From NCBI RefSeq assembly GCF_014205215.1, contig NZ_JACHNC010000001.1, forward strand, positions 8,552,501 through 8,616,500: 64,000 nucleotides of DNA. Reading direction: 5' to 3'. Shown here one piece after another: positions 3,275-30,298 of the stretch. The stretch's first letter is position 1. Each line of letters starts with the position of its first letter. A program made the translations under genes and the position numbers. Below the pieces are notes generated by a model. It worked only from the letters and a program-made list of their open reading frames with translations. It ran no database searches and was not told the DNA's origin. This DNA comes from Actinoplanes lobatus. GTDB lineage: Bacteria > Actinomycetota > Actinomycetes > Mycobacteriales > Micromonosporaceae.

Positions 3275-4399
3275 ATGTCTCGAACGACGGCACGGGTGGC
3301 GCAATGGTGGCGGCGGTGGCCGTTCTGGTCGGGATACGCGGCCGCCGGCTGGTCACTGATGTACGGCTCGCTGGGTCTGTACTGGACGGCCGGCGGCGGT
3401 GGGTTCCCGTTCGCGCCGGCCGTCGACGACCGCCGGTCCGGATCGGTGCTGGAGGGAAGCCCGGTCGAGGTGGTCGCCCCGGTCATGGCCGTGCTCGGGC
3501 TGCTCGGAGCGGTCGTCGCGCTGGCGATGGCCCGTGGCGCCGGCTCCCGGCGCACCGCGGTCGCGATGATCGTTTTCGGCTGGTTCACGGCGGCCGGGCT
3601 CGCCCTGGCCATCCCCGACTACACGATGATCGCCCTGGTCGCGTTCGCCCCGTTGCTGCTGGTCTTCGCGTTCACCGGCGTGCCCGGCCCCCAGGAGGGA
3701 ATCGGCGACATCCTGTACTGGCACCGCACCAATCTGATCATCCTGTTCGCCGGGGGTCTGCTGTGGGCCGCCGCCACGCTCGCCCACCAGCGCCGGGTGC
3801 GTGGCGAATGCCGGCACTGCGGCCGCCATCCCGCCACCGGCCCCGGCCCGTCCCGGCGCACCCTGCTGCGGTGGGGACGCTGGGCAGTGCTGGTCGCCTG
3901 CGTGGCGCCGCTGCCGTACGAGATCACCCGGGTGGCCTGGTTTCTCGGCCATCCCCTCGGCATCAGCCACGACTTCCTGCGGATGATGCAGGACACGCCG
4001 GGCATGCTGAGCATCGGCCTGGGCTGCGCGATCGCGTCCGCGGTCGGCGGTGTCCTCACGCACGGCCTGGTCAGCCGGTGGGGCGAGGTCTACCCACGGT
4101 GGATCTGGTTCCGGGCCGGGAAGCCGGTGCCGCCCGCCCTCGCGGTCGTGCCCGCGTCGATCGTCGCCGTCGTCCTGGTTCCGGCCGGGCTGATGATGGT
4201 CTGGGACCCGGACATCGGCGACGGGTGGGCGCTGCGGGCGCCCAGCATCCTCTGGCTGTTCTGGAGCGCCGGCCTGGCGGCCGCCACCTACGCCTACCAT
4301 CTGCGCCGTCGCGGTTTCTGCCGCGCCTGCGGCCGCGGTGGATGGCCGGAACCCGTCGAGGGTACGCGCGGCGGCGCACCCGCCACAGTTGCCGGCTGA
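3275..4399 (+). CDS. Uncharacterised multi-pass membrane protein with two CxxC motifs
   Basis: 374 aa. A good ribosome site (aaggag, 5 nt before the ATG) fixes the start. I count about eight hydrophobic segments. Two short cytosolic-looking loops carry Cys pairs: CRHCGRH between predicted segments 4 and 5 (about residue 178), and CRACGRG near the C-terminus (about residue 349). These could bind zinc or be redox-active. I recognise no catalytic motif. The gene is divergent from a two-component system whose palindrome lies in its promoter region, so it may be the target of that system. It converges on the synthase operon with only 3 bp between stop codons. Confidence 0.8.
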   Translation: MSRTTARVAQWWRRWPFWSGYAAAGWSLMYGSLGLYWTAGGGGFPFAPAVDDRRSGSVLEGSPVEVVAPVMAVLGLLGAVVALAMARGAGSRRTAVAMIVFGWFTAAGLALAIPDYTMIALVAFAPLLLVFAFTGVPGPQEGIGDILYWHRTNLIILFAGGLLWAAATLAHQRRVRGECRHCGRHPATGPGPSRRTLLRWGRWAVLVACVAPLPYEITRVAWFLGHPLGISHDFLRMMQDTPGMLSIGLGCAIASAVGGVLTHGLVSRWGEVYPRWIWFRAGKPVPPALAVVPASIVAVVLVPAGLMMVWDPDIGDGWALRAPSILWLFWSAGLAAATYAYHLRRRGFCRACGRGGWPEPVEGTRGGAPATVAG

Positions 4400-4402
4400 C
4401 GG

Positions 4403-6409
4403 TCAGCCCGCCGCTGGTTTGCGGGCCAGCAGGCGGTAGGTGTTGCCGCCCGCCGTGAACGCGATCGCCGCGCCGGCCAGACGGTCCAGGACCGCGGCCG
4501 GGATCACCAGCGGGATGACCGCACTCCAGGCCAGGGCTCGCCGAACCCGGGTCCAGCGGGTCGCCGGCCGGCCGGCCCAGGGGCGGTCCGGGTCGGGGAA
4601 GTGGCTGTTCATCCAGAGCAGGATCGCGGCGGACAGGTCGCACGGCTGGTGGGCCCGGCCGGTGTCGGTGGCGACCACGGTCAGGCCCCGGGCGGTGATC
4701 GCCTCCACGAGACGGGGCAGCGAGACGAGGTTCAGGTGCTGTGGCTGGAAGTACGGCAGCCACAGGCTGCGCAGCAGGCGGGCCGGGCCGAACCGCGGGT
4801 TCGGGACCTCGATGAGCAGGTGGCCGCCCGGTGGCAGGGCACGGGCCGCGGCCTCGATCTCGGCCCGCGGATCGAGCGTGTGCTCCAGGTAGTGGTGCAT
4901 GCTGATCACGTCGTACCGGCCGGCGAGACCGTCCGCCGCCTCGGGGAACATGCCCTGGTGGGCGGTGCCGATCCAACCGCGGCGCTGGGCCTCCAGGACG
5001 CCGTCGCCCATGTCGAGGCCGTCGAAGACGGTGTCGGGGAACTCGGGCGCCGCGTACCGGCAGAAGTGGCCCCAGCCGGTGCCGACGTCCAGCCACCTGC
5101 GCGGGTGGGTGTGGGCGCGGACCATGTCGACCCGGCCACGGTAGAAGTCGACGGTGCCGGCCAGGAGCTTCTCGCTGGAGGACTCGCCCAGCCCGTCGTA
5201 GACGTCGCGGTAGTAGAACTCCAGCCCGGCGCCGTTCAGCCGGGGGTTCTGGAAGGTGTGCCCGCAGTCCCGGCACTGGTCGAGCGAGAAGGAGCCGGGC
5301 TTGCTCATGATCCGGTCCGGGGAGGTGAGACGGTGGCGCAGATCGGTGCCGCCGCACCAGGGGCAGTCGTCGCGGCGGGGCTCGAAGAAGCGGCTCGTTC
5401 CGTCGGCCAGGTCCCGGGTGTAGCCGGTCCGGGCGTGGGCGCGGCGTTCGTCCATCTCCCGGTCGTACGGTGACCGCCACGTTCCCCGGGCGCACCGCCA
5501 CCAGCGCAGCGGGTCGCGGAACGGGCGCAGCCAGGCGGCCCGGGCACGGTCGGCCGGGCGCACGGCGGTGCCGGCCGTCACCAGGTAGGGCTGGGCGGCG
5601 TAGGCGGCGAGGGCGAGCAGTCCCCACGCCGGGTCGAGGACGACCGCGGTGGCCAGCAGCAGGTAGCCGTACAGGCGGCCGGCCAGGGTGGCATGCACCG
5701 ACGCGGTGGAGGCGCGCAGCCGGGCCCGGAACGTCGCCGGGTCGTCCGGAACGGCGGTGAGCGCCGGGGTCACGAGCAGGCCGGCGTCGGCCGCGGCGTA
5801 CTTCTTCAGCCGGTCGGCGATCCGGATCATGGTGGCCGGGTCATGGCCGCCGCCGGATTCCAGCCCTGCGCGGGCGGCCAGGGCCTCGTCGACCAGCAGG
5901 GCCTGGCCGGCGCCGCGGCCGGGCGCCAGCGGATCGGTCCGGTAGGTGGCCGGGTCGACCTGGCGGACCAGGGTGAACGTGTCGGACATCGGCAGGTCGG
6001 CGGGGACCAGGTCCAGGACGGCGAGGCCCTCCCGCACGGCGTGGGCCACCGCCTGCGCCCGGGTCCGCTCGTCGACAGTGACTCCGGCGGCGGTGATCAG
6101 GATGAAGCGGTCGGCCTCGTCCTCCGGAGGGTCGCCGCCGCCGGGCCGGGTGTCCGGCTCCCGAGCGGCCGGAACGTAGATGGCCTCGCCCGCCGGGGAA
6201 CCCGATGAACCGGTCGCGGACCCTGGGGTCCCGGCGGATGAGGCGGGCACGGAGACCGGCATCCGGGCGGGCGCGGCCGGCACGGTGACCGGGTTCCTGG
6301 CGGGAACCGGGGGAAGCGACGGGATGGCGCGGAGACGGGCGCGCAGGCGCAGCCCGTCCAGCAGCAGGACGGCGGCCGCGACGGCGGCGGGCAGCATCGA
6401 CCCGTTCAA
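4403..6409 (-). CDS. SAM-dependent methyltransferase with long membrane-associated N-terminal half
   Basis: 668 aa. The C-terminal half (about 335-580) is a class I methyltransferase: a Cys pair CPWCGG and a second CRDCGHTF precede motif I LDVGTGWGHF, then the SMHHYLEH stretch and LIEVPNP. The first 330 residues start with a hydrophobic helix and a Pro/Ala/Ser-rich linker. A region with two hydrophobic segments follows (about 225-275) that faintly resembles the end of a family-2 glycosyltransferase but lacks clear catalytic motifs. The TTG at 6409 is chosen because ggaggt lies 7 nt upstream and it overlaps the preceding stop (TTGA); the ATG at 6397 has no well-spaced site. It is the last gene of the synthase operon, probably methylating the sugar or the lipid (inference). 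Confidence 0.8.
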   Translation of the reverse strand: MNGSMLPAAVAAAVLLLDGLRLRARLRAIPSLPPVPARNPVTVPAAPARMPVSVPASSAGTPGSATGSSGSPAGEAIYVPAAREPDTRPGGGDPPEDEADRFILITAAGVTVDERTRAQAVAHAVREGLAVLDLVPADLPMSDTFTLVRQVDPATYRTDPLAPGRGAGQALLVDEALAARAGLESGGGHDPATMIRIADRLKKYAAADAGLLVTPALTAVPDDPATFRARLRASTASVHATLAGRLYGYLLLATAVVLDPAWGLLALAAYAAQPYLVTAGTAVRPADRARAAWLRPFRDPLRWWRCARGTWRSPYDREMDERRAHARTGYTRDLADGTSRFFEPRRDDCPWCGGTDLRHRLTSPDRIMSKPGSFSLDQCRDCGHTFQNPRLNGAGLEFYYRDVYDGLGESSSEKLLAGTVDFYRGRVDMVRAHTHPRRWLDVGTGWGHFCRYAAPEFPDTVFDGLDMGDGVLEAQRRGWIGTAHQGMFPEAADGLAGRYDVISMHHYLEHTLDPRAEIEAAARALPPGGHLLIEVPNPRFGPARLLRSLWLPYFQPQHLNLVSLPRLVEAITARGLTVVATDTGRAHQPCDLSAAILLWMNSHFPDPDRPWAGRPATRWTRVRRALAWSAVIPLVIPAAVLDRLAGAAIAFTAGGNTYRLLARKPAAG

Positions 6410-7617
6410 CGGGTGACCTCCGGGATCAGAATGGTGGAACGTGCGAGAGATTCCAGGTGGGTGACCGCCTCGTCCGCGCCACCGGCAGCGTGGAAGGCCG
6501 CGCGGATCCGGGCCGCCGCGTGGGCGTACCCCGGATCGCTGTGGATCGTGTCGACGGCCGCGCCGATGTGGGCGGCGGTGGCGTGCGCGAAGCGCAGCCG
6601 GACGCCCGCGCCCGCGTTCACCACCTGGCCGGCGACGATGCTCTGGTCGTCACGGATCGGGGCCACCACCAGCGGTCGGCCGTGCCACAGCGACTCGGCG
6701 ACCGTGTTGTGCCCGGCATGGCAGATCACCAGGTCGGCCCGCTTCAGTACGGCCTGCTGCGGCACCCACGGTGTCACGTGGACGTGGCCGGGGCACGGCC
6801 CGACCACCCGGCCGGGGTCGGTGATCACCGCGTGCAGGCCGGGGCGCGCGGCCAGGGCTTCGGCGCAGGCCCGCAGGAAGCGGGCCCCCGTCTCGGTGGA
6901 CTGGGTGCCGAGCGTCACCAGGACCAGCGGCCGGCCGGCGGGCGGATGGACCTCGGCCGGGCCGGGGGCCGCGGCGGAATCAGCGGGCCGACGGGGCCAG
7001 GGTGGAGTCCAGGTGCCGGGGTCGTCCAGCGGGGCCGGGCCGACCCAGCGCACCGAGGACGGCGCGGCGGTGGCGGGGCCGGTGAGCTCCGGGGTGGTGA
7101 ACGCCAGGATCAGGTGCGGCGACATGCGTGGATCGGCGACCGGCCGCGGGTGGGCGACCGCGGCGAAGCAGCCGGACAGCCAGTCGCGCAGGGCCGGCGG
7201 GTACGGGTCGAGCAGTTCCGCCGATGTGGAGGCGGAGGTGGCCCAGGGCAGTCCGGCTTCAGCGGCCGCGTAGGCACCGGCCCACGCCTGCTGGTCGGCG
7301 ACGACCACGTCGGGCCGGTGCCGGATGATCGCGGCGCGGAGACCGGGCAGCATCGCGGTCGCCAGCGGCACCAGGAAGTCCTCGACGAGGAACCGCAGCG
7401 CGGCGAGCCCGCGCAGGCCGGGTTCTCGGGCGCCGACGGTGAAGGACACCGGAACGCAGTCGTGGATCTCGGCGGTGGGCCCGAGGCGTTCCCGCAGCCA
7501 CCGGCCCGTCCCGGCCCACACCACGTGGTGGCCGCGGGCGGCGAGGCGGGCGGCGACCGCCCGCAGCGGGGCGAGGTGTCCGGTCAACGGCGGCACCACG
7601 ATCAGGAAACGGCTCAC
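6406..7617 (-). CDS. GT1 (UGT/MGT-like) glycosyltransferase
   Basis: 403 aa, the usual length for macrolide/UDP-glycosyltransferases. The N-terminus reads FLIVVPPLTGHLAPLRAVAARL, the typical acceptor-domain opening. The C-terminal donor-binding domain has LVTLGTQS, then WVPQQAVLKRADLVICHAGHN and WHGRPLVVAPIRDDQ, close to the family signature. The GTG start at 7617 overlaps the hydrolase stop as GTGA. By context it should glycosylate the product of the synthases upstream, which would make the end product a glycolipid or glycoside. The sugar donor is unknown, and no sugar-nucleotide genes are adjacent. Confidence 0.92.
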   Translation of the reverse strand: MSRFLIVVPPLTGHLAPLRAVAARLAARGHHVVWAGTGRWLRERLGPTAEIHDCVPVSFTVGAREPGLRGLAALRFLVEDFLVPLATAMLPGLRAAIIRHRPDVVVADQQAWAGAYAAAEAGLPWATSASTSAELLDPYPPALRDWLSGCFAAVAHPRPVADPRMSPHLILAFTTPELTGPATAAPSSVRWVGPAPLDDPGTWTPPWPRRPADSAAAPGPAEVHPPAGRPLVLVTLGTQSTETGARFLRACAEALAARPGLHAVITDPGRVVGPCPGHVHVTPWVPQQAVLKRADLVICHAGHNTVAESLWHGRPLVVAPIRDDQSIVAGQVVNAGAGVRLRFAHATAAHIGAAVDTIHSDPGYAHAAARIRAAFHAAGGADEAVTHLESLARSTILIPEVTR

Positions 7618-8423
7618 GGCGTCACGGCCCCGGCGAGGGCGCCCCGGCGGGCGGCCAGCCACGGCAGGACGACGGCGGCCACCTCCTGAGGCGCGGAGGC
7701 GAGCAGCGCGTGGCCGTGGCCGGGAATCACGGCGACGTCGCACGGTGGCAGCAGGCCGAGGACGGTGTCCAAGCGGGCGTGCAGGCCGGAACCGCCGCCG
7801 ACGACCATCAGCAGGGGGCACCGCAGCCAGCCGTCCGGATAGCGGTCGGCGAGACCGGTCCGGTCCAGGACCTCGGCGGCCAGCGTGGTGGCCTGGAGCG
7901 CCCGCGCCGTCGCGGTGAACCGCCGGGCCAGGACGGGCAGGGCGGATTCGCGTTCGGCCCGGGCGATCCACTCGGGGTCGGCGAGGTAGGCGGCCAGCCC
8001 GGCCAGTTCGCCGGCGGTCCGCTCGGCCCAGCCGGGGGTCGGCGGCTCGGATTCGATGACGACCAGGGAGGCGACGCCGTCCGGGAAGCGGTGGGCGTAC
8101 CGGAAGGCGACCGTGCCGCCCCACGAGTAGCCGACCAGGTGCACCGGCCCGGTGATCCTCAACTCGGCGAGGAGCCCGGCCAGGTCGCCGGTGGCGTAGT
8201 CGACGCCGTACCCGTGCGGTGGACGGTCACTGCGGCCGTGTCCGCGCAGGTCGTAGGCGGTGACGTCGAAGCCGAGGGCGGCGACCGGCCCGGCCAGGGT
8301 GAAGTAGTAGCAGGCCATGCTGTCGCCCAGGCCGTGGACGAAGACGAGCGGTGGCGCGCCCGGATCGGCCTGCCGCATCCGCTGGACGTGCAGGCGTACC
8401 CCGTTGGTGTTGATGTGGGCCAT
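7614..8423 (-). CDS. Alpha/beta hydrolase (probable chain-release or editing thioesterase)
   Basis: 269 aa. The oxyanion loop is in LVFVHGLGDS, the nucleophile elbow is GYSWGG (Ser100), YDLRGHGRSD is typical of the fold, and the C-terminal catalytic His is in IPGHGHALL. The ATG at 8423 follows the ACP stop by 4 bp. Neither synthase carries a thioesterase domain, so this enzyme may release the acyl chain from an ACP. Esterase or lactonase activity on the finished product is equally compatible with the sequence. Confidence 0.88.
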   Translation of the reverse strand: MAHINTNGVRLHVQRMRQADPGAPPLVFVHGLGDSMACYYFTLAGPVAALGFDVTAYDLRGHGRSDRPPHGYGVDYATGDLAGLLAELRITGPVHLVGYSWGGTVAFRYAHRFPDGVASLVVIESEPPTPGWAERTAGELAGLAAYLADPEWIARAERESALPVLARRFTATARALQATTLAAEVLDRTGLADRYPDGWLRCPLLMVVGGGSGLHARLDTVLGLLPPCDVAVIPGHGHALLASAPQEVAAVVLPWLAARRGALAGAVTP

Positions 8424-8427
8424 CGGC

Positions 8428-8709
8428 TCAGGCGTGTTCCAGGCGGGCCGTCACGTACTCGGCGAGGTCGCCGACCCGCAACGTGATGATCTCCGGAAGC
8501 GTCCGGGTGGACAGGAAACCGGCCAGGTCGATACCGGGGCCGTAGCGTTCGGTGAGCAGGGTGCCGAGCACCACCAGGTCGATGCTCTCGAAGGCGAGGT
8601 CGGCGTCGAACGACGTGTCCGGGGTGATCGGCACGGCGTTCAGGTCGTACCCGTCGAGGACCTCGCGGATCAGGTCACCGATCTCGGCGAGAACGGTTTC
8701 GGTGGTCAC
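8428..8709 (-). CDS. Discrete acyl carrier protein
   Basis: 93 aa, acidic and helical. The phosphopantetheine site is Ser42 in DLAFESIDLVVL, which fits the carrier consensus with E in place of the more usual D before Ser. The GTG at 8709 overlaps the stop of the upstream synthase (GTGA). The PPTase domain at the end of that synthase could activate it. It may present a starter, an extender or the finished chain to the hydrolase. Confidence 0.92.
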   Translation of the reverse strand: MTTETVLAEIGDLIREVLDGYDLNAVPITPDTSFDADLAFESIDLVVLGTLLTERYGPGIDLAGFLSTRTLPEIITLRVGDLAEYVTARLEHA

Positions 8710-11700
8710 GGCAGCACCTCTCGGTCGGTGGTCCAGGCGACGACGTGCCGTCGTCCTTCGTGATGCAGATCGGTCAGGCGTACGCGCAGATCGCCCGCCG
8801 TGGTCGCGACGGTGGCCTCCGTGTCACTCGCGGCGATGACGCGCAGCGTGTGCGGGTTGCCGCCGAGGCCGGTGCCGAGCGCCTTGCCGGCGGCCTCCTT
8901 GGCGGCGAAGAAGCGGGTGAACCAGACGGCCCGGTCGCCGCCGAGCAGGTCCCGTTCGGCCGGGGTGAGCGCCGCGGCGACGGTGGCGTCGTCGCGGTCG
9001 GCGACCTCGAGGACGTCGATGCCGACCGGCCCGGACGGACGGGCCAGGGCGACGCCGATCGATCCGTGGTGGGCGATCGAGACGGCCAGCGGCGGTAACC
9101 GGCGCCCGTGCCGTCCGGTGATCCACGGCCGTCCGGCCTCGTCGTTGCCGGTGTCGAGCTCGATCGGGAAGACCTCGGGGTCGGTGAGCATGGCGCGGAC
9201 CGCGTCCTTGAGGGCGATCCGGCCGAGCAGCCACGGGTCCCGGCCGCGGGCCGGCCGCCGCTGGTAGAGGGCCCATTCGGCGGGGGTGAGGTAGGTACGG
9301 GCGATCAGGTCGCGGCTGGCCTGGTCGGCCCAGTGGGTGGTGGCCCAGTGCCAGCCGGCCTCGTGGCGGCGGGCCAGCCGGGCGGTGGCGGGCGACCGGT
9401 CCACGGCCCGGACCGCGTCGTCGCTGGTGAACCGGTGCAGCCGCCAGCCGTGCATCTCGGCCCGCACCGTGCCGTCGTGGACCAGTTGCAGGTCGGCGGT
9501 GACCGTGCCGCCGGTGACGGCGACGATCCGGACATGGCAGGTGAGCGTGTCGCCGGGGGCCGGGTCGGGGCCGTACAGGCGCAGCGCGGTGAGGGCGACC
9601 GGGAAGGCCCGGTTGTCGCCGTCCAGCTCCTCCGTCATCCAGTAGCCGACAAGTTGGGCGGCGCTGTCCAGCAGGGCGCCACCGGCGGCCGGGGTGGTCA
9701 GGGTGCCGTGCACGTGCCGGGCGCCGATCCCGTCGATGCCGGTCACGCCCTGGTAGGCGGGGCCGTGGAACATCCAGCGGCCGGCGTACATCTGGGTCGC
9801 GGTCAGGCGTGGCGTGCGGCCCGGTTCGGCGGGTTGCGGCCACACCGCCGGGGCGGGCGGGTAGGCGCCGCTGAACTCGACGGTGGCGCGGGCGTACCCC
9901 TGTGCCGTGACGCGGCGGCGGTCCGGCGTGTCGGCGTCGATCGCGAAGGTGACGGTGACCGGCGGCGCGACCGCGAGCCAGCGGTCGAACCCGGCGTCGT
10001 GCACACCGGTCACCACGCCGCTCGCGGTGGGCCGGGCCGCGTCGCACAGGTGCCGGATCAGGTCGGTGGCCGGGACCACCGGGAAGCCGTCGCCGGGTTC
10101 CGGCCAGCCGAGCGGCAGCTGCACGAACGTGTGGTCACGCAGATAGGGCAGCCGGTCCAGGGACAGGTGGCGGCGGACCGTGGTGGTGGGCACGGCGCGC
10201 CGCCGGACGGCGGCGACGACGTCGGCCGCGGCCCGGGCGGTCTCGGCGGCGACGGCGGCGGCCCGGTGGTCACCGGATTCGACGGGTACGGCGACGCGGC
10301 CCAGGAGCGCGGCGGCGTCCTCGCCGAGCGACACCACGGGGTTGCCCAGCGACAGCCGGACCGTCGCCCCGGAGGACGACCGGGGGTTCCGTGGCGCGAG
10401 CAGGTCCCCGCCGGGCTCGGCGCCCTCGGCCCACAGCGCGGCGAGCACCCGGGTGAGCTGCCCGGTCCCGGTCTGCCGGGGGGTGGTGGCGGCGATCGCC
10501 AGGTGGTCGTGGCCGCGCAGCACGTCGTGCACCAGCGAGGCGAGCCCGCCCGGCCCGACCTGGACGAAGGCGCGGACCCCTTCGGCGTGCAGCCGTTCGA
10601 CGAGTGGCCGGAACCGGACCGGTTCGAGCAGGTGGCGGACGAACAGCTCGCGGATCGCGCCGGGCTCGTCCGGGTACGGCGCCAGCGTCGTCGCCGACCA
10701 CAGCGGCGTCCGCCACGGCCTGGCGTCGAGGAGTTCGGCGGCGGCGGTGAGGCGGTGCACGTACGGCCGCAGCCGGGACGTGTGGAACCCGGACCGGAAC
10801 GGCAGCACCTGCCCGGTGATCCCGTTCCCGGCCAGGGCGAGCAGCAGCTTCCCGACCTCGCCGGACGGGCCGCAGACCACGCACTGGTGGGGCGCGTTGT
10901 CGTGCGAGACGGTGACGCCGGTCCCGCCCAGGAACGGCTCGACGGTGCCGGCGCCGGCGCCGACCGCGGCGAACACCACGTCGGGCACCTGCCGGACGGC
11001 GTCGGCGAACGCCTCCAGCACGGGTTCCAGTTCGCCGTCGTGGTAGCCGGCCGCCACCGCCATGGCGGTCCACTCCCCCAGTGAGTGCCCGGCCAGCACG
11101 TCCGGGCGTACCCCCTGGTCGCGCAGCGCGGCGTCGAGCAGCCGGCTGGCCCGGGAGACCGACACGCCGTGCCGGTGCAGGCCGTCGGCTCCGGGCAGCG
11201 GCACGTCCCGGCCCATCCGGGCGGCGACGTCGGCGACCCGGGGCTCGAACTCGCCCTCCAGGCCCGGGTAGAGGAACGCGATCCGGCCCTGCCCGCCGGC
11301 CAGCAGCGGCCGTGGGCTGAACCAGATGTCCTGGCGTCCCCGCCACGGTTGCCCGGCCGCGACCACCTTGCGGGCGGTGGCCAGGGTGCGGGCGGTGGGC
11401 GCGACGATCGCGAGCCGCATACGGCCGGTCCCGGACGGTACGGGCGGCGGCCGGTCCAGCAGCGCCGCCAGCTCGTCGGTGGTGTCGGCGGCCAGCCGCA
11501 GCAGCGGCACCGGCTCCCGGACCCGCGGCGGGCGGCCGGCGGCCGGGGCCGCTTCCAGGACGGCGTGGGCGTTGACGCCGCCGAACCCGAACGCGTTGAC
11601 GGCGGCCCGCCGGGTGTGACCGAACCAGGCGCGGGCCACCGGGATCGGCCGGAACCGGGTGGCGGCCAGCCCGGGGTGCGGGTCCTCGCAGGCGGGCATC

Positions 11701-12878
11701 GGTGGCAGCACGCCGTGGTGGACGGCGAGGGCGGCCTTGACGAATCCGGCGATCCCGGCGGCCGGCATGGTGTGGCCGATCAGTGCCTTCACCGAGCCGA
11801 GGACGGCGGGCCGGCCGGGACCGAACACGGCGTGCAGGGTGGCCAGCTCGCAGGCGTCGCCGGCCGCCGTGGCGGTGCCGTGCGCCTCGATCAGGCCGAT
11901 CGCGTCCGGGTCGGTGGGGTCGAGTCCCGCGGCCGACCAGGCCTGGCGCAGCGCGGCGGCCTGACCGGCGGAGACCGGGTTCATCAGGCTGGCCGCGCCG
12001 GCGTCGCCGGACACCCCGGTGCCGCGGACCACGGCGTAGACCCGGTCGCCGTCGCGGCGCGCGTCGGCCAGCCGTTTGAGCACCACGATGCCGCTGCCCT
12101 CGCCGATGACCAGACCGTCGGCGGCGCCGGTGAAGGGGCGGCTGCGGCCGGTCGGGCTGACCGCGCCGAGCCCGGCGAAGACGCTCCACAGGGTGGTGTC
12201 GTGGGCGTGGTGGACGCCGCCGGCGAGCACCACGTCGCAGCGGTCGCGGGCGAGTTCGGCGACGGCCTGGTCGACGGCGAGCAGCGACGAGGCGCAGGCG
12301 CCGTCGACGGTGTACGCGGGGCCGCCGAACCCGTGCCGGTGGGCGATCCGGGCGGCCGCGAGGTTGGGCACCAGGCCGATCTCGGCGCCCGGCGACACCG
12401 GGCCGAGCCGGTCGGTGAACGCGTCGCGGATCCGGGCCGCGGTGTCCGGGTCCAGGCCGGGCAGCAGCTCGGTGAGGGTGTGGGCGAGCTGGTGGGCGCC
12501 GCGTACCCGCTGGTCGAACCGGGACAGGGCGGGGGTGAGGTAGCCGCCGCGGCCGAGGATCACACCGATCCGGCCGGGGTCGCACATGCCGGGTTCGAGG
12601 CCGGCGTCGGCGAGCGCGGCGCCGGCCACGTGCAGGGCGATCAGCTGATCGGGTTCGGTCAGCGGCAGCGCGGCCGGCATCACCCCGAGGGCGGCCGGGT
12701 CGACGGTGGCCAGGTCGCCGAGGAAGCCGCCGCGCCGGCCGGCGGGCAGCCCGTACCCGGGTGGGGCCTCGGTGACGCTGTCGGTGCCGGTGACGATGTT
12801 GCGCCAGTAGGTGTCCAGGTCGGGGGCGCCGGGGAACAGCACCGCCATGCCGACGACGGCGACCGGTTCCACGGTCAC
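8706..12878 (-). CDS. Iterative type I synthase, KS-AT-DH-PPTase
   Basis: 1,390 aa. KS (about 5-430): Cys195 in DGACASS, then EAHGTAT and IGHTMPAAG, so all three catalytic residues are present and this is not a chain-length factor. AT (about 500-790): Ser599 in GHSLGEW. A hot-dog dehydratase-like region has the candidate His915 in PYLRDH. The C-terminus (about 1180-1390) is a Sfp-type PPTase with VSIAHHGS, VGIDV and FFAAKEAAGKALG. I find no ACP. The GTG start at 12878 overlaps the previous stop (GTGA). The PPTase placed after DH recalls enediyne synthases; the two-protein split recalls PUFA synthases. With the preceding protein it gives a complete KS/AT/KR/DH/ER set plus one ACP and its activating enzyme. 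Confidence 0.93.
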   Translation of the reverse strand: MTVEPVAVVGMAVLFPGAPDLDTYWRNIVTGTDSVTEAPPGYGLPAGRRGGFLGDLATVDPAALGVMPAALPLTEPDQLIALHVAGAALADAGLEPGMCDPGRIGVILGRGGYLTPALSRFDQRVRGAHQLAHTLTELLPGLDPDTAARIRDAFTDRLGPVSPGAEIGLVPNLAAARIAHRHGFGGPAYTVDGACASSLLAVDQAVAELARDRCDVVLAGGVHHAHDTTLWSVFAGLGAVSPTGRSRPFTGAADGLVIGEGSGIVVLKRLADARRDGDRVYAVVRGTGVSGDAGAASLMNPVSAGQAAALRQAWSAAGLDPTDPDAIGLIEAHGTATAAGDACELATLHAVFGPGRPAVLGSVKALIGHTMPAAGIAGFVKAALAVHHGVLPPMPACEDPHPGLAATRFRPIPVARAWFGHTRRAAVNAFGFGGVNAHAVLEAAPAAGRPPRVREPVPLLRLAADTTDELAALLDRPPPVPSGTGRMRLAIVAPTARTLATARKVVAAGQPWRGRQDIWFSPRPLLAGGQGRIAFLYPGLEGEFEPRVADVAARMGRDVPLPGADGLHRHGVSVSRASRLLDAALRDQGVRPDVLAGHSLGEWTAMAVAAGYHDGELEPVLEAFADAVRQVPDVVFAAVGAGAGTVEPFLGGTGVTVSHDNAPHQCVVCGPSGEVGKLLLALAGNGITGQVLPFRSGFHTSRLRPYVHRLTAAAELLDARPWRTPLWSATTLAPYPDEPGAIRELFVRHLLEPVRFRPLVERLHAEGVRAFVQVGPGGLASLVHDVLRGHDHLAIAATTPRQTGTGQLTRVLAALWAEGAEPGGDLLAPRNPRSSSGATVRLSLGNPVVSLGEDAAALLGRVAVPVESGDHRAAAVAAETARAAADVVAAVRRRAVPTTTVRRHLSLDRLPYLRDHTFVQLPLGWPEPGDGFPVVPATDLIRHLCDAARPTASGVVTGVHDAGFDRWLAVAPPVTVTFAIDADTPDRRRVTAQGYARATVEFSGAYPPAPAVWPQPAEPGRTPRLTATQMYAGRWMFHGPAYQGVTGIDGIGARHVHGTLTTPAAGGALLDSAAQLVGYWMTEELDGDNRAFPVALTALRLYGPDPAPGDTLTCHVRIVAVTGGTVTADLQLVHDGTVRAEMHGWRLHRFTSDDAVRAVDRSPATARLARRHEAGWHWATTHWADQASRDLIARTYLTPAEWALYQRRPARGRDPWLLGRIALKDAVRAMLTDPEVFPIELDTGNDEAGRPWITGRHGRRLPPLAVSIAHHGSIGVALARPSGPVGIDVLEVADRDDATVAAALTPAERDLLGGDRAVWFTRFFAAKEAAGKALGTGLGGNPHTLRVIAASDTEATVATTAGDLRVRLTDLHHEGRRHVVAWTTDREVLP

Positions 12879-15800
12879 CAGCCCGGGGCCGCGTAGACGA
12901 CGCTGGTCAGCGCCGGGTCGCCGTGGGTCAGCTCGTCCAGCAGGGCGGCGGCGCCGGCGGCCGGGTCGATCAGCTGGACGCCCCGTGCGGCGTACCGGCC
13001 GGCGAGTTCGGCGGTCACCATGCCGCCGTGCCTGCGGTCCGGCGCCCACGGCCCCCAGTGGACGGTGAGGCAGCGCCGTCCGGTGCGGGCCGCCCAGCGG
13101 CGGCCGCAGTCGTCGAGGGCGTCGTTGGCGGCCGCGTAGTCGCACTGTCCCCGGCTGCCGCGGACCGCCGCGACGCTGCCGAACAGGGTCACGAACCCGG
13201 GCGCGTCCGGCAGGTGGTCGAGGGCGTCCAGCACGTTGCGGGCGCCGTCGACCTTGGTGCCGAAGACGCGCCGGAACGAGTCGGTGGTCTTGTCGGCCAG
13301 CAGCCGGTCCTCGATCACCCCGGCCGCGAACACCACCCCGTCGAGCCGCCGGTACGCGGCGTGCACCGTCTTCACCAGCCCGTGGACCGCTTCGGCGTCG
13401 GTCACGTCGAGGGTGCGGTACTCGACGGTCCGGCTCAGGGCGCGCAGCTCGGCGACGGTGGCGGCCACCTCCCGCCGGGCCAGCACGGCACGGGCCCGCC
13501 GGTCGACGCCGGCCGGGTCGCGGCCGGCAAGGACGCGCCGCAGCGCGGTCAGGTCGGTGGCGGCGGCCAGTTCGGCGTCCTCCGGCTCGCCGTCCGGCGC
13601 GGTCCGGCCGGCCAGCACGATCCGGCAGCCGGTACGGGCCGCGAACTCACCCGCCACGGTCGCGGTGATCCCACGCCCGCCGCCGATCAGGAGCACCACG
13701 GAGTCCCGGTTCAGTTCGGTGGTGGCCCGTCCGGCGGACCGGGACGGTGGCACGGGCCGTACCGACGGCGCCAGCCGGTTCGTGCCGTGCCGGACGACCG
13801 GCTCACCGTCGCGGTCGGCGAGTTCGGCGGTCAGCAGCGCGGCGACGGTCGCCGTGTCCACCCCGGACGGCACGCTGACCAGCCTGGTCAGGACGCCGGG
13901 CCGCTCCTGCCGCATCGACCGGACGAAGCCCGGCAGCCCGTCGGCGCGGGCGTCGCCGTCGACTGCGGCGACCAGCACCCCACGGCCGGTCGCGGCGGCC
14001 GCCCGCAGCTCCTCGAACAGCACCGGAAGCCACGGCTGCTCGTCGTCGCCGTCGCCCAGCGGCCCGGCCAGGACGAGGTCGTCGCCGCCGTCGGCCACGA
14101 CCGGGACGCCCTGCTCGCGCAGCGCCCGGACCAGCTCGTCCGGCCCGTCGACGGTGACCGTGCGCCCGGCCGGTACGGCGTCCGCGGCCGGCGGGGCCGG
14201 CGCCCATTCGCAAAGGAACCGTTGCGGCGCGACGGCCGGTGGCCCGCCGTCGAGCAGCGCCGCCATCTCCCCCGCGGTGCGGGCGCGGCCCAGCCGTTCC
14301 AGGGCGGGCCCGGTGCCGCCGGTCAGCTCGCCGACGATCTCGGTGCGTTTGATCGAGTCGATGGAGAGGTCGGCTTCCAGGTCGACGTCCGCGCCGATCA
14401 GGTCGACCGGGTAGCCGGTACGGGTGCTGATCACCGCCCGTACCCGGTCGAGGGTGTCCACCGGCTCGGCCGGGGCCGTGGCCGCGCCGGTGACCGCCGG
14501 CGCCGCCGTGGGCTCCGGGGCGTGGGCCGGCTCGACCGCGGCCGGCGGTGGCGTACCCAGGTAGGCGAGCATGACGTCGCGCTGGGTGGCCACGAACTCC
14601 CGGGTGGTGCGCAGGTAGTCCTCGATGAGCCGGTCGGGGTCGCCGGGCAGGGCGGCGGCCGGAACCGGGCGGGCGGCGGCGATCCCGCCGGTCAGGTAGG
14701 CGCCGTCGGCGGTCCGGACCGCGTGCCCGTCGACGGTCCAGCGCGGCGGTGGCGCCGGGACCGTGTCGGTGAGGTCGGTGGCGTCCCGGCCCCGGTAGAG
14801 CGGGTCGAGGTGCACCGGCACCCCGGCCAGGGCGAGTTCGGCGACCGCGGACAGGGCGCCGGCCAGTCCTCCGCCGGCCTGCTCGAAGTTCACCACCCGG
14901 TGCGGGCGGTCGGCGAGGATGGCGCCGACCAGGTTGCTGAGGGTGGTTCCGGGGCCGCATTCGGCGAAGACGCGGGCGCCGGCGGCGTACATCGCCTCGA
15001 TCTGGTCGGCGAAGCGGACCGGGGCGCCGATCTGGTCGCCCAGTTCGACGGCGATCAGGGCGGGCCGGTCCGGGTACGGCCGGGCGGTGCGGTTGGCGTA
15101 CACCGGGATCCGGGGCGCCTGCGGCGACAGCCCGGCGACCGCCGCGGTGAACCCGGGCCCGGCCGCGGTCACGAGCGGACTGTGGAAGGCGCAGGCCACG
15201 TCCAGGGCGGTGACGGTGTGGCCGAGCGCCCGCAGCCGCGCGGTGGCCTGCTCGACGGCGCCGGGAACGCCCGCGATGACCGTCTGGGTGGGGCTGTTGT
15301 GGTTGGCCAGCACCACCCCGTCGACGGCGGCGACCTCGGCGGCGATCTCGTCGGGCGGGCCGGTGACCGCGGCCATCGTGCCGGGCTGGGATCCGGCGGC
15401 CGCGAGGATCTCCTCGGCCCGCCGCAGGCTCAGCGCGGACAGGGCGGTGGCCGGCAGCGCGCCGGCGGCGGTGAGGGCGACGAGTTCGCCGTAGCTGTGC
15501 CCGCCGGCCATGTCGGCGGTGACGCCGAGCAGGGTGAGGAAGCGGTGGGCGGCCAGGCCGGTGAGCCCGAGGGCGGGCTGGGCGTTGCGGGTGTCGCGCA
15601 GCCGGTTCCGCTGGCGGTGGGCGCTGTCCGGGTCGAAGGCCGCGCCGGGGTAGAGGGCCCGTACCCAGTCGCCGCCGTGCTCGGCGGGTTCCCGCAGTTC
15701 GGGGAAGGTGATCAGCAGCGACGCGAACATGTCGACGCGCTGGCTGCCCTGGCCGGGGAAGAGCAGTGCCAGTTTCGGGCGCTCGGTGGCCCGTACCCCG

Positions 15801-18800
15801 TCGTGGTCGAGGTTTTCCAGGCGGGACCGCAGGTCGTCGATCGAGGTGGCGAGCACCGAGTGGGTGGGCGCCGCCGCGGTACGCGACAGCCGGGCGGCCG
15901 CGGTCCGGGCGAGGTCCCGCAGCCGGGCCCGTGGGTGGGTGTCGAGCAGCCCGCGCAGCCAGGCGGCGTCGGCCGGTGAGGCGAACAGGAACAGTTCCAC
16001 CGGCCACTGGTCGAGGCCGTGCCGTGGTTCCGGCCCGCGATGGCCGGTCAGCACGGCGTGGAAGTTGGTGCCGCCGAACCCGAACCCGCTGACCGCGCCG
16101 ACCCGTCGTTCCAGGGTGTCCGGCCAGGGTCGCGCCACCTTGTCGAAGGCGAACGGGCTGTCCTCGGACCAGTCGTCGTGCGGGCGGGTGAGGTGCGTGG
16201 TGGGCGGGCGGATGCCGGTGTGGATGGACAGTGCCGTCTTGATCAGACCGGCCATGCCGGCCGCGCACTTGGTGTGGCCGATCTGCGACTTCACCGAGCC
16301 GAGCGCCGCCGAGCCGGGAGCCGCGCCGGCCTCGGTGTACACCCCGGTGAGGGTGGCCAGCTCGGTACGGTCGCCGACCACCGTTCCGGTGCCGTGCGCC
16401 TCGACCAGCCCCACCTCGGCCGGTGACACCCCGGCCTGCCGGTAGGCGCGCAGCAGCGCCGCCCGCTGGCCCTCCGGCCGGGGCGCGGTCAACCCGCGGG
16501 CCCGGCCGTCGCTGGCGCTGCCGACGCCGCTGATCACCGCGTACACCCGGTCGCCGTCGCGTTCGGCGTCGGCCAGCCGTTTGAGCACCAGGCAGCCGAC
16601 GCCCTCGCCGAGCGCGATGCCGTCGGCCGCGGCGTCGAACGGGCGGGACCGGCCGGTCGGCGACAGCGCCCCGGCGGCCGCGAAGTGCCGGTAGTCGAGC
16701 AGGCTGTTGTGGGTGTCGGCGCCGCCGCACAGCACCAGGTCGGCGCTGCCGGTGACCAGTTCGCGGCAGGCGGCGTCGAGGGCGGCCAGCGAGGAGGCGC
16801 AGGCGGCGTCGACGATGTAGTTGGCGCCGCCGAGGTCCATCCGGTTGGCGATCCGGCCGGTGATCACGTTGGCGAGGACACCGGGGAAGGTGTCCTCGGT
16901 GAAGCCGGGCAGCTGCGCGTCCAGGGCCTCGGGCACCCGGTCCAGGTAGGCGGGCAGCACGGCCCGCAGGGTGAGCGCGTGCGCCAGTTCGCCGCCGGAC
17001 TCGGCGCCGAAGACCACCGCGGTACGGGACCGGTCGAACGGCCGCCCGCTGTCGGCGGCGTCCGGGAACGGCTGGTAGCCGGCGTCGGCGAGGGCCCGCC
17101 CGGCCGCCTCCAGGGCGAGCAGCTGCACCGGCTCGATGGCGGCCAGCGACGCCGGCGGGATGCCCCAGGCGACCGGGTCGACCGGCACCCGGGGCAGGAA
17201 TCCGCCCCACCGCGACGGAACGTCGTGCCGGTCCGGGTCCCACCGGTCGGCCGGCACCTCGGTGATGGCGTCGGCGCCGGCGACCACCTGCGACCAGAAG
17301 GCGGCGGTGTCCCCGGCGCCGGGGAAGATGCCGGCCAGGCCGACGATCGCCACGTCCAGCGGTGCGGCGGCGCGGTCCGGTTCCGGGCGCGCCACGGCGT
17401 CGGCCGGGGGCACGGCCAGCCACGCGGCGGCGCCGGCGGTCACCTCGGCGTGCAGTTCGGCCACGGTGGTGACGGCGTCGCGCAGCACCGCCACCTGACC
17501 GGCCATGAACAGGCCACCGTCGCGCTGCACCCGCTCGTCGACCGGTTCCAGATCCCCGCCGGTACGCCGCAGGCCCTTGCTGGCCAGTCGCAGCCGGCCC
17601 AGGTTGAGGCGTTCCAGCGCGTCCCAGATCTCCCGGTCCGGTGTTCCGGCGGCACGCAGCCGGTCCCGGGCCGCGGTGAACTCGGCGGCGTACGGGCTGG
17701 CCACGCAGCGGGTCAGGTGGCCGGGCGCGGTCTCCAGGACGGTGGTGGCCCGGGCCCGCAGGATCTCCTGCTGGAACACCGGCCCGATCGCGCCCGAGCC
17801 GACCGCCTCCGCGGTGAACAGGTACGCCGTGCCCATGAGCAGGCCCACCCCGGCGCCGCGGGCGGCCAGCGGCGCCGCGGCGGCGGTCGCCATGGCGGCC
17901 GAGCGGGCGTCGTGCACGCCACCGGCGAACAGTACGTCGAGGTGGTCGCCGGGGTGCTCGTCCAGCCAGTCGAGCAGCACCGGGATCTGCGCCTGCCAGA
18001 GCGCGAAGCTGCTGGCCGGGCCGATGTGCCCGCCGCATTCGGCGCCCTCGAAGACGAACCGGCGGGCCCCGGCGCCGAGGAACTGCCGCAGCAGGCCGGG
18101 CGACGGCACGTGCAGGAACGCGGCGACGCCCGCCGACTCCAGCCGGGCCGCCTGGTCGGGCCGGCCACCGGCGATGATCACGGCGGCCGGGCCGGCCTCG
18201 AGGATGGCGTCGAGCTGGGCGGCGCGGGTCTCCTCCGGGGCGAAGCCGAGGATGCCGGCCGCCCACGGTTGTCCGGCCACCGCCCGCGCCGTCGCCCGCA
18301 GCAGGGAGTGGCTGGTCTTGCCGTCGGCGAGCGACAGCGCGACACAGGGCAGCCCGCCTCCGGCGGCGACGGCGGCCGCCAGCTCGGGACGGTCGCTGAC
18401 CCGGGTCATCGGTCCCTGGACCACCGGAAGGGTGGTGCCGAGCCGCCGGGCGAGCGGGGCACCCGGGCCGAGGGCGGGAGCGGTGCGCCCGGATTCGACG
18501 GCCGCCCGGATCGCCCGGATCACGCCGGGCACGTCGCGGTGGCGGCGGGCGAGGTCGGCGGCCAGGTACGCGTCCAGGCCGGCGCCCGAGGTCTGCCGGG
18601 TCAGCGCGGCGGCCATCGCCGGTGGCGGGCAGGCTTCCGGCAGCAGCGCCAGAGCCGTGTCGAGGACGACGCCGGCCGCTCCCCCGGCGACCGCGGCCGC
18701 CGCGGTGTGCGGGCCGATGCCGCCCCACGCCCACACCGGCACGCCCAGTTCGGCGAGCAGTTGCTGGAGCAGGACGAAGACGGACAGTCCGGCGTCCGGG

Positions 18801-19165
18801 TCACCGGTCTCGGCGCCCCGGGCGAGCAGGCCGTCGGCGCCGTCGGTGATCGCGGCGCGGGCCTGGACGAGGCCGGTGACCTCGGCTAGTACGGTCCGGC
18901 CGCCCCACACCCCGGCACTGATCCCGGCCGGCACGACCACGGTGTCCACCTGTTCCGGCAGGTCCGCGGCCGTCAGGGTCGCGTTCACCCGTACCCCGAA
19001 CCGGCCCGGCACCCATCGCGCCGCCCGCCGCAGTTCGGCGGCCGCCGGACCGTCGTGTCCGCTGAGATCCAGCACACCCTGCACCCCGGCCCGGCAGCAG
19101 GCGGCCAGCAGCCGCCCGTCCGGGAGCCCGAAGGGGGTGACGGCCATGATCGTTGCAGTGTTCAC
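12875..19165 (-). CDS. Iterative type I synthase, NMO-NMO-KS-AT-ACP-KR (PUFA/secondary-lipid type)
   Basis: 2,096 aa from the GTG at 19165 (the ATG at 19147 and GTG at 19189 are alternatives). Residues about 1-200 and 215-590 each resemble the TIM barrel of nitronate monooxygenases and of the PfaD enoyl reductase; the second has the typical EGAECGGHIGP stretch, the first does not. KS starts about 603 (Cys788 in DAACASS, EAHGTGT, IGHTKCAAG). AT: Ser1223 in GGHSYGEL. A single ACP has Ser1603 in DLSIDSIKRTEI, the form seen in PUFA-synthase carriers. The KR has GGGRGITATVA near 1828 and YAAAND near 2009. It is first in a six-gene operon. An ER domain fused to the N-terminus, rather than encoded separately as PfaD, is unusual. 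Chemistry is inferred from domains only. Confidence 0.92.
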   Translation of the reverse strand: MNTATIMAVTPFGLPDGRLLAACCRAGVQGVLDLSGHDGPAAAELRRAARWVPGRFGVRVNATLTAADLPEQVDTVVVPAGISAGVWGGRTVLAEVTGLVQARAAITDGADGLLARGAETGDPDAGLSVFVLLQQLLAELGVPVWAWGGIGPHTAAAAVAGGAAGVVLDTALALLPEACPPPAMAAALTRQTSGAGLDAYLAADLARRHRDVPGVIRAIRAAVESGRTAPALGPGAPLARRLGTTLPVVQGPMTRVSDRPELAAAVAAGGGLPCVALSLADGKTSHSLLRATARAVAGQPWAAGILGFAPEETRAAQLDAILEAGPAAVIIAGGRPDQAARLESAGVAAFLHVPSPGLLRQFLGAGARRFVFEGAECGGHIGPASSFALWQAQIPVLLDWLDEHPGDHLDVLFAGGVHDARSAAMATAAAAPLAARGAGVGLLMGTAYLFTAEAVGSGAIGPVFQQEILRARATTVLETAPGHLTRCVASPYAAEFTAARDRLRAAGTPDREIWDALERLNLGRLRLASKGLRRTGGDLEPVDERVQRDGGLFMAGQVAVLRDAVTTVAELHAEVTAGAAAWLAVPPADAVARPEPDRAAAPLDVAIVGLAGIFPGAGDTAAFWSQVVAGADAITEVPADRWDPDRHDVPSRWGGFLPRVPVDPVAWGIPPASLAAIEPVQLLALEAAGRALADAGYQPFPDAADSGRPFDRSRTAVVFGAESGGELAHALTLRAVLPAYLDRVPEALDAQLPGFTEDTFPGVLANVITGRIANRMDLGGANYIVDAACASSLAALDAACRELVTGSADLVLCGGADTHNSLLDYRHFAAAGALSPTGRSRPFDAAADGIALGEGVGCLVLKRLADAERDGDRVYAVISGVGSASDGRARGLTAPRPEGQRAALLRAYRQAGVSPAEVGLVEAHGTGTVVGDRTELATLTGVYTEAGAAPGSAALGSVKSQIGHTKCAAGMAGLIKTALSIHTGIRPPTTHLTRPHDDWSEDSPFAFDKVARPWPDTLERRVGAVSGFGFGGTNFHAVLTGHRGPEPRHGLDQWPVELFLFASPADAAWLRGLLDTHPRARLRDLARTAAARLSRTAAAPTHSVLATSIDDLRSRLENLDHDGVRATERPKLALLFPGQGSQRVDMFASLLITFPELREPAEHGGDWVRALYPGAAFDPDSAHRQRNRLRDTRNAQPALGLTGLAAHRFLTLLGVTADMAGGHSYGELVALTAAGALPATALSALSLRRAEEILAAAGSQPGTMAAVTGPPDEIAAEVAAVDGVVLANHNSPTQTVIAGVPGAVEQATARLRALGHTVTALDVACAFHSPLVTAAGPGFTAAVAGLSPQAPRIPVYANRTARPYPDRPALIAVELGDQIGAPVRFADQIEAMYAAGARVFAECGPGTTLSNLVGAILADRPHRVVNFEQAGGGLAGALSAVAELALAGVPVHLDPLYRGRDATDLTDTVPAPPPRWTVDGHAVRTADGAYLTGGIAAARPVPAAALPGDPDRLIEDYLRTTREFVATQRDVMLAYLGTPPPAAVEPAHAPEPTAAPAVTGAATAPAEPVDTLDRVRAVISTRTGYPVDLIGADVDLEADLSIDSIKRTEIVGELTGGTGPALERLGRARTAGEMAALLDGGPPAVAPQRFLCEWAPAPPAADAVPAGRTVTVDGPDELVRALREQGVPVVADGGDDLVLAGPLGDGDDEQPWLPVLFEELRAAAATGRGVLVAAVDGDARADGLPGFVRSMRQERPGVLTRLVSVPSGVDTATVAALLTAELADRDGEPVVRHGTNRLAPSVRPVPPSRSAGRATTELNRDSVVLLIGGGRGITATVAGEFAARTGCRIVLAGRTAPDGEPEDAELAAATDLTALRRVLAGRDPAGVDRRARAVLARREVAATVAELRALSRTVEYRTLDVTDAEAVHGLVKTVHAAYRRLDGVVFAAGVIEDRLLADKTTDSFRRVFGTKVDGARNVLDALDHLPDAPGFVTLFGSVAAVRGSRGQCDYAAANDALDDCGRRWAARTGRRCLTVHWGPWAPDRRHGGMVTAELAGRYAARGVQLIDPAAGAAALLDELTHGDPALTSVVYAAPGW

Positions 19166-22091: not shown

Positions 22092-22172
22092 GGGGGGAGC
22101 TCCGTTCACCAGGCTGTATAGACAGCTTTAATTGTGAACGAACGGGCCCCCGCCGGATCCATACCACTTCGG

Positions 22173-28778: not shown

Positions 28779-28780
28779 GG

Positions 28781-30268: not shown

Positions 30269-30298
30269 CGCGTACCTTCCAGGACACGGGACGCGTTG

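What the first reader, a model, noticed from the sequence alone, without database searches (positions are those of the whole stretch)
4403..19165. Six-gene operon encoding a two-protein iterative lipid synthase with glycosylation and methylation genes
All catalytic functions for an iterative, reducing chain (KS, AT, KR, DH, ER-like, ACP, PPTase) lie in two proteins followed by ACP, hydrolase, GT1 and methyltransferase. Five of the junctions are 4-bp overlaps or gaps. The architecture shares features of PUFA synthases (SIDSIKR carrier, PfaD-like ER) and of enediyne synthases (PPTase after DH), but has only one in-chain ACP and an N-terminal ER. Product inferred: a glycosylated secondary lipid.
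Basis: partly seen in the sequence, partly recalled or inferred. Interest (0 to 1): 0.85.

Follow-up and report, generated by a model that had tools for sequence, protein, structure and literature searches.

The report
Type M lipid operon, swappable head
An Actinoplanes genome carries six tightly packed genes, kept in the same order in other actinobacteria, that are predicted to build a long fatty chain on a two-protein synthase and likely cap it with a sugar and a methyl group; in related bacteria the sugar-adding gene's place is taken by a predicted sulfate-adding one, which hints at what the still unknown product would look like.

Summary
The operon is as described: A (ER-KS-AT-ACP-KR), B (KS-AT-DH-PPTase), ACP, alpha/beta-hydrolase, GT1, methyltransferase; its five junctions are four 4-bp overlaps and one 4-bp gap. 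It is not a new PUFA/enediyne mosaic. Both KS domains fall in actinobacterial clades, the A clade with Actinosynnema mirum, and the PPTase motifs fit the 'Type M' secondary-lipid synthases of Shulse and Allen (2011), a class without known product. The nearest characterised machine is the phenolic-lipid ArsA/ArsD type, whose Beijerinckia relative has the same ER-KS-AT-ACP-KR plus DH-PPTase order. New here: all 78 loci annotated keep A-B-ACP-hydrolase; a glycosyltransferase follows in 44 and a sulfotransferase in 34, never both, and the sulfotransferase form is one clade. Full-length methyltransferases of this family occurred only in genomes with the synthase (38 of 38 such genomes among 394; 5 of 5 among 67 Actinoplanes). 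Best reading: a very-long-chain glycolipid pathway with an exchangeable head-group enzyme. Product, acceptor hydroxyl and sugar are inferred. HglE and enediyne references were not compared, and structure prediction did not run.

The parts
12875..19165 (-). Synthase A, 2096 aa from GTG 19165 (or 2090 aa from ATG 19147): ER (NMO type), KS, AT, ACP (LSIDSIK), KR
   Evidence: Pfam; catalytic residues; KS clade
8706..12878 (-). Synthase B, 1390 aa: KS with catalytic Cys, AT, PS-type DH, PPTase
   Evidence: Pfam; residues; PPTase motifs AGRP and VSIAH
8428..8709 (-). Free acyl carrier protein, 93 aa
   Evidence: PP-binding; Ser kept in 78 of 78 aligned rows
7614..8423 (-). Alpha/beta-hydrolase, 269 aa, predicted release or transfer enzyme
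   Evidence: Abhydrolase_6; Ser100 kept in 76 of 78 (Cys in 2), His238 in 78 of 78
6406..7617 (-). GT1-type glycosyltransferase, 403 aa (the head-group slot)
   Evidence: UDPGT, EryCIII-like_C; MGT family below cut-off, 146 of 260 bits
4403..6409 (-). Methyltransferase, 668 aa: hydrophobic start, N-terminal region without Pfam match, four invariant Cys, SAM methyltransferase
   Evidence: Methyltransf_23; first 363 aa without Pfam match; invariant columns of 54 relatives; hydropathy

Best explanation
The six genes form a secondary-lipid operon of the Type M kind whose two synthase proteins are predicted to build a long, largely reduced acyl chain iteratively, which the downstream enzymes likely release, glycosylate and methylate into a membrane-associated glycolipid. 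Proposed steps, all inferred from homology: the PPTase of B primes the ACPs; AT and KS of A load and condense malonyl units on the in-chain ACP; KR (A), DH (B) and the NMO-type ER (A) reduce them, as in ArsA/ArsD; the second, catalytically complete KS-AT of B works with the free ACP in priming or in a last step; the hydrolase takes the chain off; the GT adds a sugar to a hydroxyl; the methyltransferase acts last, at the membrane. Shown: gene content, presence of catalytic residues, conserved order, and that the gene after the hydrolase is a GT or a sulfotransferase, never both, in the loci examined. Inferred from that swap: the lipid carries a hydroxyl that either enzyme can cap.
For: Domains and residues. 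A-B-ACP-hydrolase in 78 of 78 loci annotated, then GT in 44 or sulfotransferase in 34, none with both. Sulfotransferase form is one clade of 32 rows, support 100, in a tree of 71 loci. Both KS clades and PPTase motifs fit Type M. Beijerinckia Type P proteins read ER-KS-AT-ACP-KR and DH-PPTase, the latter 28% identical to the end of B; ArsA of Azotobacter is reported to make C23-C25 fatty acids (PMC4824345, passages). Full-length methyltransferases: 38 of 38 genomes that have one also have the synthase, among 394, and 5 of 5 among 67 Actinoplanes, all five of the GT form. Named Streptomyces plasmid with the same six genes.
Against: No product is known, and GT, hydrolase and MT functions are by homology only. 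Shared gene position does not prove a shared acceptor for GT and sulfotransferase. The three nearest relatives outside Actinoplanes (G550, G531, G537) have the GT but no MT in the stretch read, so methylation is not a fixed part. The operon is patchy: 22 of 67 Actinoplanes. The PPTase Asp is replaced in 8 and the Lys in 6 of 78 aligned rows, 3 more rows are gaps at each (window intact). HYD and MT have the highest dN/dS, 0.66 and 0.62. Type M membership rests on one named sequence (A. mirum) and motifs; the paper's domain figure is not held.
Confidence: 0.65

Rival explanations
1. It is a polyunsaturated fatty acid synthase (Pfa type) that makes an EPA- or DHA-like membrane lipid, with GT and MT as unrelated neighbours.
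For: PfaA model is the best NCBIfam hit of A, 810.5 bits; SIDSIK-type ACP; PfaD-like ER.
Against: 810.5 bits is below the curated cut-off of 1010.1, while Persicobacter reaches 2170 and R. opacus 1706; Type P Beijerinckia also passes (1156), so the cut-off is not specific to PUFA. KS of A lies outside the PUFA-like clade. The second KS has its Cys, so it is not a chain length factor. GT or sulfotransferase follows in 78 of 78 loci.
Confidence: 0.08
2. It makes a polyene or enediyne-like polyketide, as the PPTase behind the DH suggests.
For: DH followed by PPTase in B.
Against: ER domain in A and a two-protein layout; the same DH-PPTase pair occurs in the Type P system. No PKSE sequence was compared in the tree, so this is open.
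Confidence: 0.06
3. The hydrolase transfers the chain to another acceptor (lipid, peptidoglycan or polysaccharide), and GT or sulfotransferase works on that acceptor instead of on the lipid.
For: Hydrolase has Cys in place of Ser in 2 of 78 rows; weak match to the O-acyltransferase OlsI, E 1.4e-7, 31 bits against a cut-off of 385.
Against: No gene for another acceptor was seen among the first five positions of the loci annotated; most hydrolase hits are to ordinary hydrolases.
Confidence: 0.12
4. It makes a bioactive polyketide, and the GT is a self-protection enzyme like the macrolide-inactivating GTs.
For: GT is nearest to the MGT family.
Against: 146 bits against a cut-off of 260 for MGT and 88.5 against 700 for the macrolide-inactivating family; a sulfotransferase takes the same place in 34 loci; no transporter or resistance gene is part of the conserved core.
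Confidence: 0.05

Closest known systems
Type M secondary-lipid synthases (Shulse and Allen 2011, PMC3098273)
   Same: KS of A clades with the A. mirum homologue; PPTase P1a and P1b' motifs, no P0 motif; actinobacterial, product unknown in 2011
   Different: Hydrolase, GT, sulfotransferase and MT slots are not mentioned in the parts read ('glycosyl' occurs 0 times in the main text); the domain figure could not be seen
ArsA/ArsD phenolic-lipid fatty acid synthase (Type P; Azotobacter, Beijerinckia)
   Same: ER-KS-AT-ACP-KR in one protein, DH-PPTase in another (Beijerinckia)
   Different: Here a KS-AT is fused before the DH, and ACP, hydrolase and GT stand where Type P has type III PKS genes; the KS is outside the Type P pair
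PfaA-D polyunsaturated fatty acid synthases (Types A, B)
   Same: KS-AT-ACP-KR order and NMO-type ER
   Different: Below the PfaA cut-off, one ACP instead of 4-6, second KS catalytic rather than a chain length factor
HglE/HglC heterocyst glycolipid synthase (Type F)
   Same: Lipid synthase whose product is a glycolipid
   Different: Type F lacks the DH domains typical of pfaC, a DH is present here; no HglE sequence was compared
Enediyne PKS (PKSE)
   Same: DH followed by PPTase
   Different: PKSE is one protein without ER (recalled); not compared by sequence

Membership tests
Type M secondary-lipid synthase | KS groups with Type M members | tested here: met
   A-KS clade of 32 rows, support 98, holds Actinosynnema mirum P0119.
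Type M secondary-lipid synthase | PPTase motifs: x(G/D)xP and hShxH present (Types M-T), P0 hRxhLS not reported | tested here: met
   AGRP, VSIAH found; hRxhLS and (F/S)NxSH not found. These motifs mark Types M-T together, not M alone.
Type M secondary-lipid synthase | Domain order of the Type M figure | not testable with these tools
   Figures are not held
PfaA (TIGR02813) | Score above the curated cut-off | tested here: not met
   810.5 of 1010.1 bits
PfaA (TIGR02813) | Tandem ACPs, 4-6 in Type A | tested here: not met
   One PP-binding match and one motif in A
Type P (ArsA/ArsD) | ER-KS-AT-ACP-KR plus DH-PPTase | tested here: met
   Window and Beijerinckia
Type P (ArsA/ArsD) | Type III PKS genes in the cluster | tested here: not met
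   None of the six operon proteins; neighbours only partly scanned
Type P (ArsA/ArsD) | KS groups with Type P | tested here: not met
   Beijerinckia and Methylosinus form their own pair, support 100
HglE heterocyst glycolipid synthase | KS groups with HglE | not tested
   No HglE sequence was fetched
Enediyne PKS (PKSE) | All domains in one protein without ER (recalled) | tested here: not met
   Two proteins and an ER domain
Enediyne PKS (PKSE) | KS groups with PKSE | not tested
   No PKSE sequence was fetched

The most novel reading that the evidence does not exclude
Operons of this kind are a general actinobacterial amphiphile factory: a conserved four-gene core makes a very long hydroxy-lipid, and one exchangeable slot gives it its head, a sugar in most lineages and a sulfate in Micromonosporaceae. 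The methyltransferase with the unknown N-terminal region is a dedicated membrane enzyme of the sugar form. In Frankia and other spore- or vesicle-formers the product would be an envelope lipid not yet assigned to genes.
Probability: 0.45. Interest if true: 0.72.

Novelty: new member of a known kind. Interest (0 to 1): 0.5.

Why it matters
The class was listed in 2011 without a product, and ten searches of an open-licence library (eight shown, with 22 and 92 on neighbouring questions) brought up none; subscription journals are largely outside that library. The head-group slot tells a chemist what to look for, a lipid with a sugar or a sulfate, and gives a natural comparison: Actinoplanes species of the GT form against those of the sulfotransferase form. 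A lipid shared by Frankia, Streptomyces, Actinoplanes and Micromonospora-type bacteria would bear on how these bacteria build specialised envelopes.

Tried and rejected
New mosaic of PUFA and enediyne synthases: rejected, since nearly all of the 120 listed homologues of A carry the same Pfam domains (7576 of 7988 scored candidates pass E 0.001, but only 120 are listed) and the KS tree places it with A. mirum.

Link to Frankia vesicle lipids: followed through papers. The two PKS reported overabundant in F. alni nodules (FRAAL5096, FRAAL4072; passages of PMC8951365) were not matched to these loci. No passage seen links this operon to the envelope; kept as an idea only.

Insertion into an empty site: the genes at 3275-4399 and 19350-20222 were searched in 67 Actinoplanes genomes. 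Only the window's genome and A. flavus show them about 15 kb apart; seven other genomes with close homologues of both (G010, G022, G026, G027, G080, G086, G090) have them on different contigs or more than 0.3 Mb apart. No empty site was found.

N-terminal half of the methyltransferase: no Pfam match, PDB profile hits only in the methyltransferase part, and structure prediction did not run.

Rows dropped. Four of the first 20 fetched regions (L048-L051: G009, G010, G042, G013) held other PKS genes and were left out of the count of 78 loci. Seven of the 78 were left out of the tree because one KS was not found whole. The 78 come from 72 genomes or records (two loci each in G126, G141, G173, G188, G199, G220). 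Of the 54 genomes matched I fetched loci from 29, of the 37 from all but three (G577, G585, G633). In one search I used 75 of the 139 KS domains extracted. A phage-collection search gave 35 weak partial matches, not followed.
Full report
Host. The window lies in a 10.4-Mb genome. Its closest relative with this operon, G019, holds it on a contig of 39,663 bases, the same length as the named Actinoplanes flavus contig; the genus group of 67 genomes is therefore taken as Actinoplanes. P0002 from Actinoplanes sp. NPDC049802 is 85% identical to A over its full length.

Observation. The six genes, their domains and their packing are confirmed. Catalytic residues were checked in an alignment of 78 rows per protein. 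In A the KS Cys and the KR Tyr are kept in 76, the AT Ser in 75, the ACP Ser in 74 (Ala in 2, gaps in 2). In B the KS Cys, DH His and DH Asp are kept in 76 and the AT Ser in 77. The free ACP Ser and the hydrolase His are kept in 78, the hydrolase Ser in 76 (Cys in 2). Most departures at the KS, AT, DH and KR sites are gaps in rows that are cut or broken; there are three real or unreadable letters (G403 X, G049 T and S). The PPTase Asp and Lys are kept in 67 and 69. The window keeps every one of these residues.

Which class. Shulse and Allen (PMC3098273; abstract, sections 7 and 8 whole, passages elsewhere) sorted secondary-lipid synthases into Types A-T. Type M holds Actinosynnema mirum, three Frankia, Renibacterium salmoninarum and Streptomyces avermitilis and had no known product. 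A tree of 75 KS domains (quick method, SH-aLRT only) puts A-KS in one clade (32 rows, support 98) with A. mirum P0119 and B-KS in another (27 rows, support 99). Beijerinckia and Methylosinus form a pair of their own; Persicobacter, Rhodococcus opacus and Streptomyces NBC_00503 form a clade; modular PKS lie outside. Several reference rows have long branches, so the deep order is unsure. The PPTase motifs agree with Types M-T. The end of B is found in 22 of 67 Actinoplanes, 37 of 200 genomes of the family and 54 of 394 of the class. Two of the class genomes have the lengths that I recall for Frankia alni ACN14a and Frankia CcI3 (G126, G176).

Nearest characterised machine. On plasmid pBIND02 of Beijerinckia indica, a Type P species, one protein reads ER-KS-AT-ACP-KR and another DH-PPTase, with two genes annotated as ketoacyl synthase III-like between them, which I take for the type III PKS genes that the paper describes for Type P. 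In Azotobacter vinelandii ArsA is reported to make C23-C25 fatty acids and ArsD to be a PPTase (PMC4824345, passages). A plus the end of B resembles this machine; the DH-PPTase parts are 28% identical. Different here are the KS-AT fused before the DH, the free ACP, and the hydrolase and GT. The predictions on chain length and reduction rest on this comparison alone.

Head-group slot. I annotated 78 loci (the window, one named Streptomyces plasmid, 76 stretches from genomes held without names) with tblastn. All 78 have A, B, ACP and hydrolase; 44 have the GT and 34 the sulfotransferase after them, none both. Of the 44, 27 also have the methyltransferase within the stretch. Of the 34, 30 are followed by one or more proteins of about 550 aa without Pfam match and with a hydrophobic start. 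The sulfotransferase of G023 matches PF13469. On a tree of 71 loci the sulfotransferase form (32 rows) is one clade, support 100, and needs one change. All 34 are in the window's family. The window's operon groups with A. flavus and then with G550, G531 and G537, whose contig lengths equal those of the Virgisporangium and Longispora proteins P0003, P0004 and P0007. In Actinoplanes the operon occurs in at least three separate lineages (window and A. flavus; G025, G028, G065; the sulfotransferase clade), with one match per genome, which suggests repeated acquisition or replacement. Loci were picked by a match to synthase B, so operons without it were not sampled.

The methyltransferase. It has a hydrophobic start, an N-terminal region without Pfam match, four invariant Cys and a SAM methyltransferase. 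Full-length relatives occur in 38 of 394 class genomes (36 as one match, 2 in split pieces), and all 38 are among the 54 with the synthase (Fisher p 1.6e-40). With the shorter form counted, 49 of 59 coincide; the ten exceptions are all in genus group g46. Only three candidates per genome were scored in those searches. The p value treats genomes as independent, which they are not; one family (f32) supplies many of them. In G441, G329, G180 and G273 the full-length gene lies on another contig or at least 80 kb from the synthase, so this is not linkage alone. In Actinoplanes the family is found in 5 of 67 genomes, exactly the five with a GT+MT operon, and in none of the 16 with the sulfotransferase form.

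A divergence step. Between the window and A. flavus the synthase half is 91-98% identical per 500 bases, the block 8500-4500 (hydrolase, GT, MT) 82-91%, and the flanks 91-97%, two windows there being only partly aligned. dS is 0.107, 0.106 and 0.128 for A, B and ACP against 0.292, 0.187 and 0.173 for hydrolase, GT and MT. Exchange of the tailoring block by recombination is one explanation, faster change another; I did not test between them.

Verdict. A sound observation with a partly superseded interpretation. The class is known, the product is not, and the swap at the head-group slot gives a concrete prediction to test.

Noticed in passing
window 4403-8500: The hydrolase-GT-MT block is less like A. 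flavus (82-91% per 500 bases) than the synthase (91-98%) or the flanks.
   Followed up: partly
L035 1-5026 and other sulfotransferase-form loci: One to three tandem proteins of about 550 aa with hydrophobic start and no Pfam or NCBIfam match follow the sulfotransferase in 30 of 34 loci.
   Followed up: partly
L046, L047, L135, L136, L137, L178: The PPTase domain at the end of B has lost the catalytic Asp and Lys in these relatives (G018, G049, G199b, G126b, G220b, G537).
   Followed up: no
L144 9001-23975 (Streptomyces sp. NBC_01243): The same six genes, annotated, lie on an 869-kb linear plasmid typed as mobilizable, next to an IS3 transposase.
   Followed up: no
window 49707-52886 (+): 1059-aa protein with a NACHT N-terminal helical domain (NNH7), a possible NLR-like defence protein.
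   Followed up: no
window 33828-35255 (-): 475-aa protein with a Cas12f1-like TNB domain, likely a TnpB-type transposon gene.
   Followed up: no
window 27309-31543 (-): Arginine deiminase with an antiporter-family gene and an amino-acid permease gene behind it, apparently an arginine deiminase cluster.
   Followed up: no
window 20907-22109 (-): Endonuclease I domain joined to DUF6359, near the operon's divergent neighbour.
   Followed up: no
phages collection: 35 phage records give weak partial matches to synthase A; possibly bacterial DNA in phage records.
   Followed up: no
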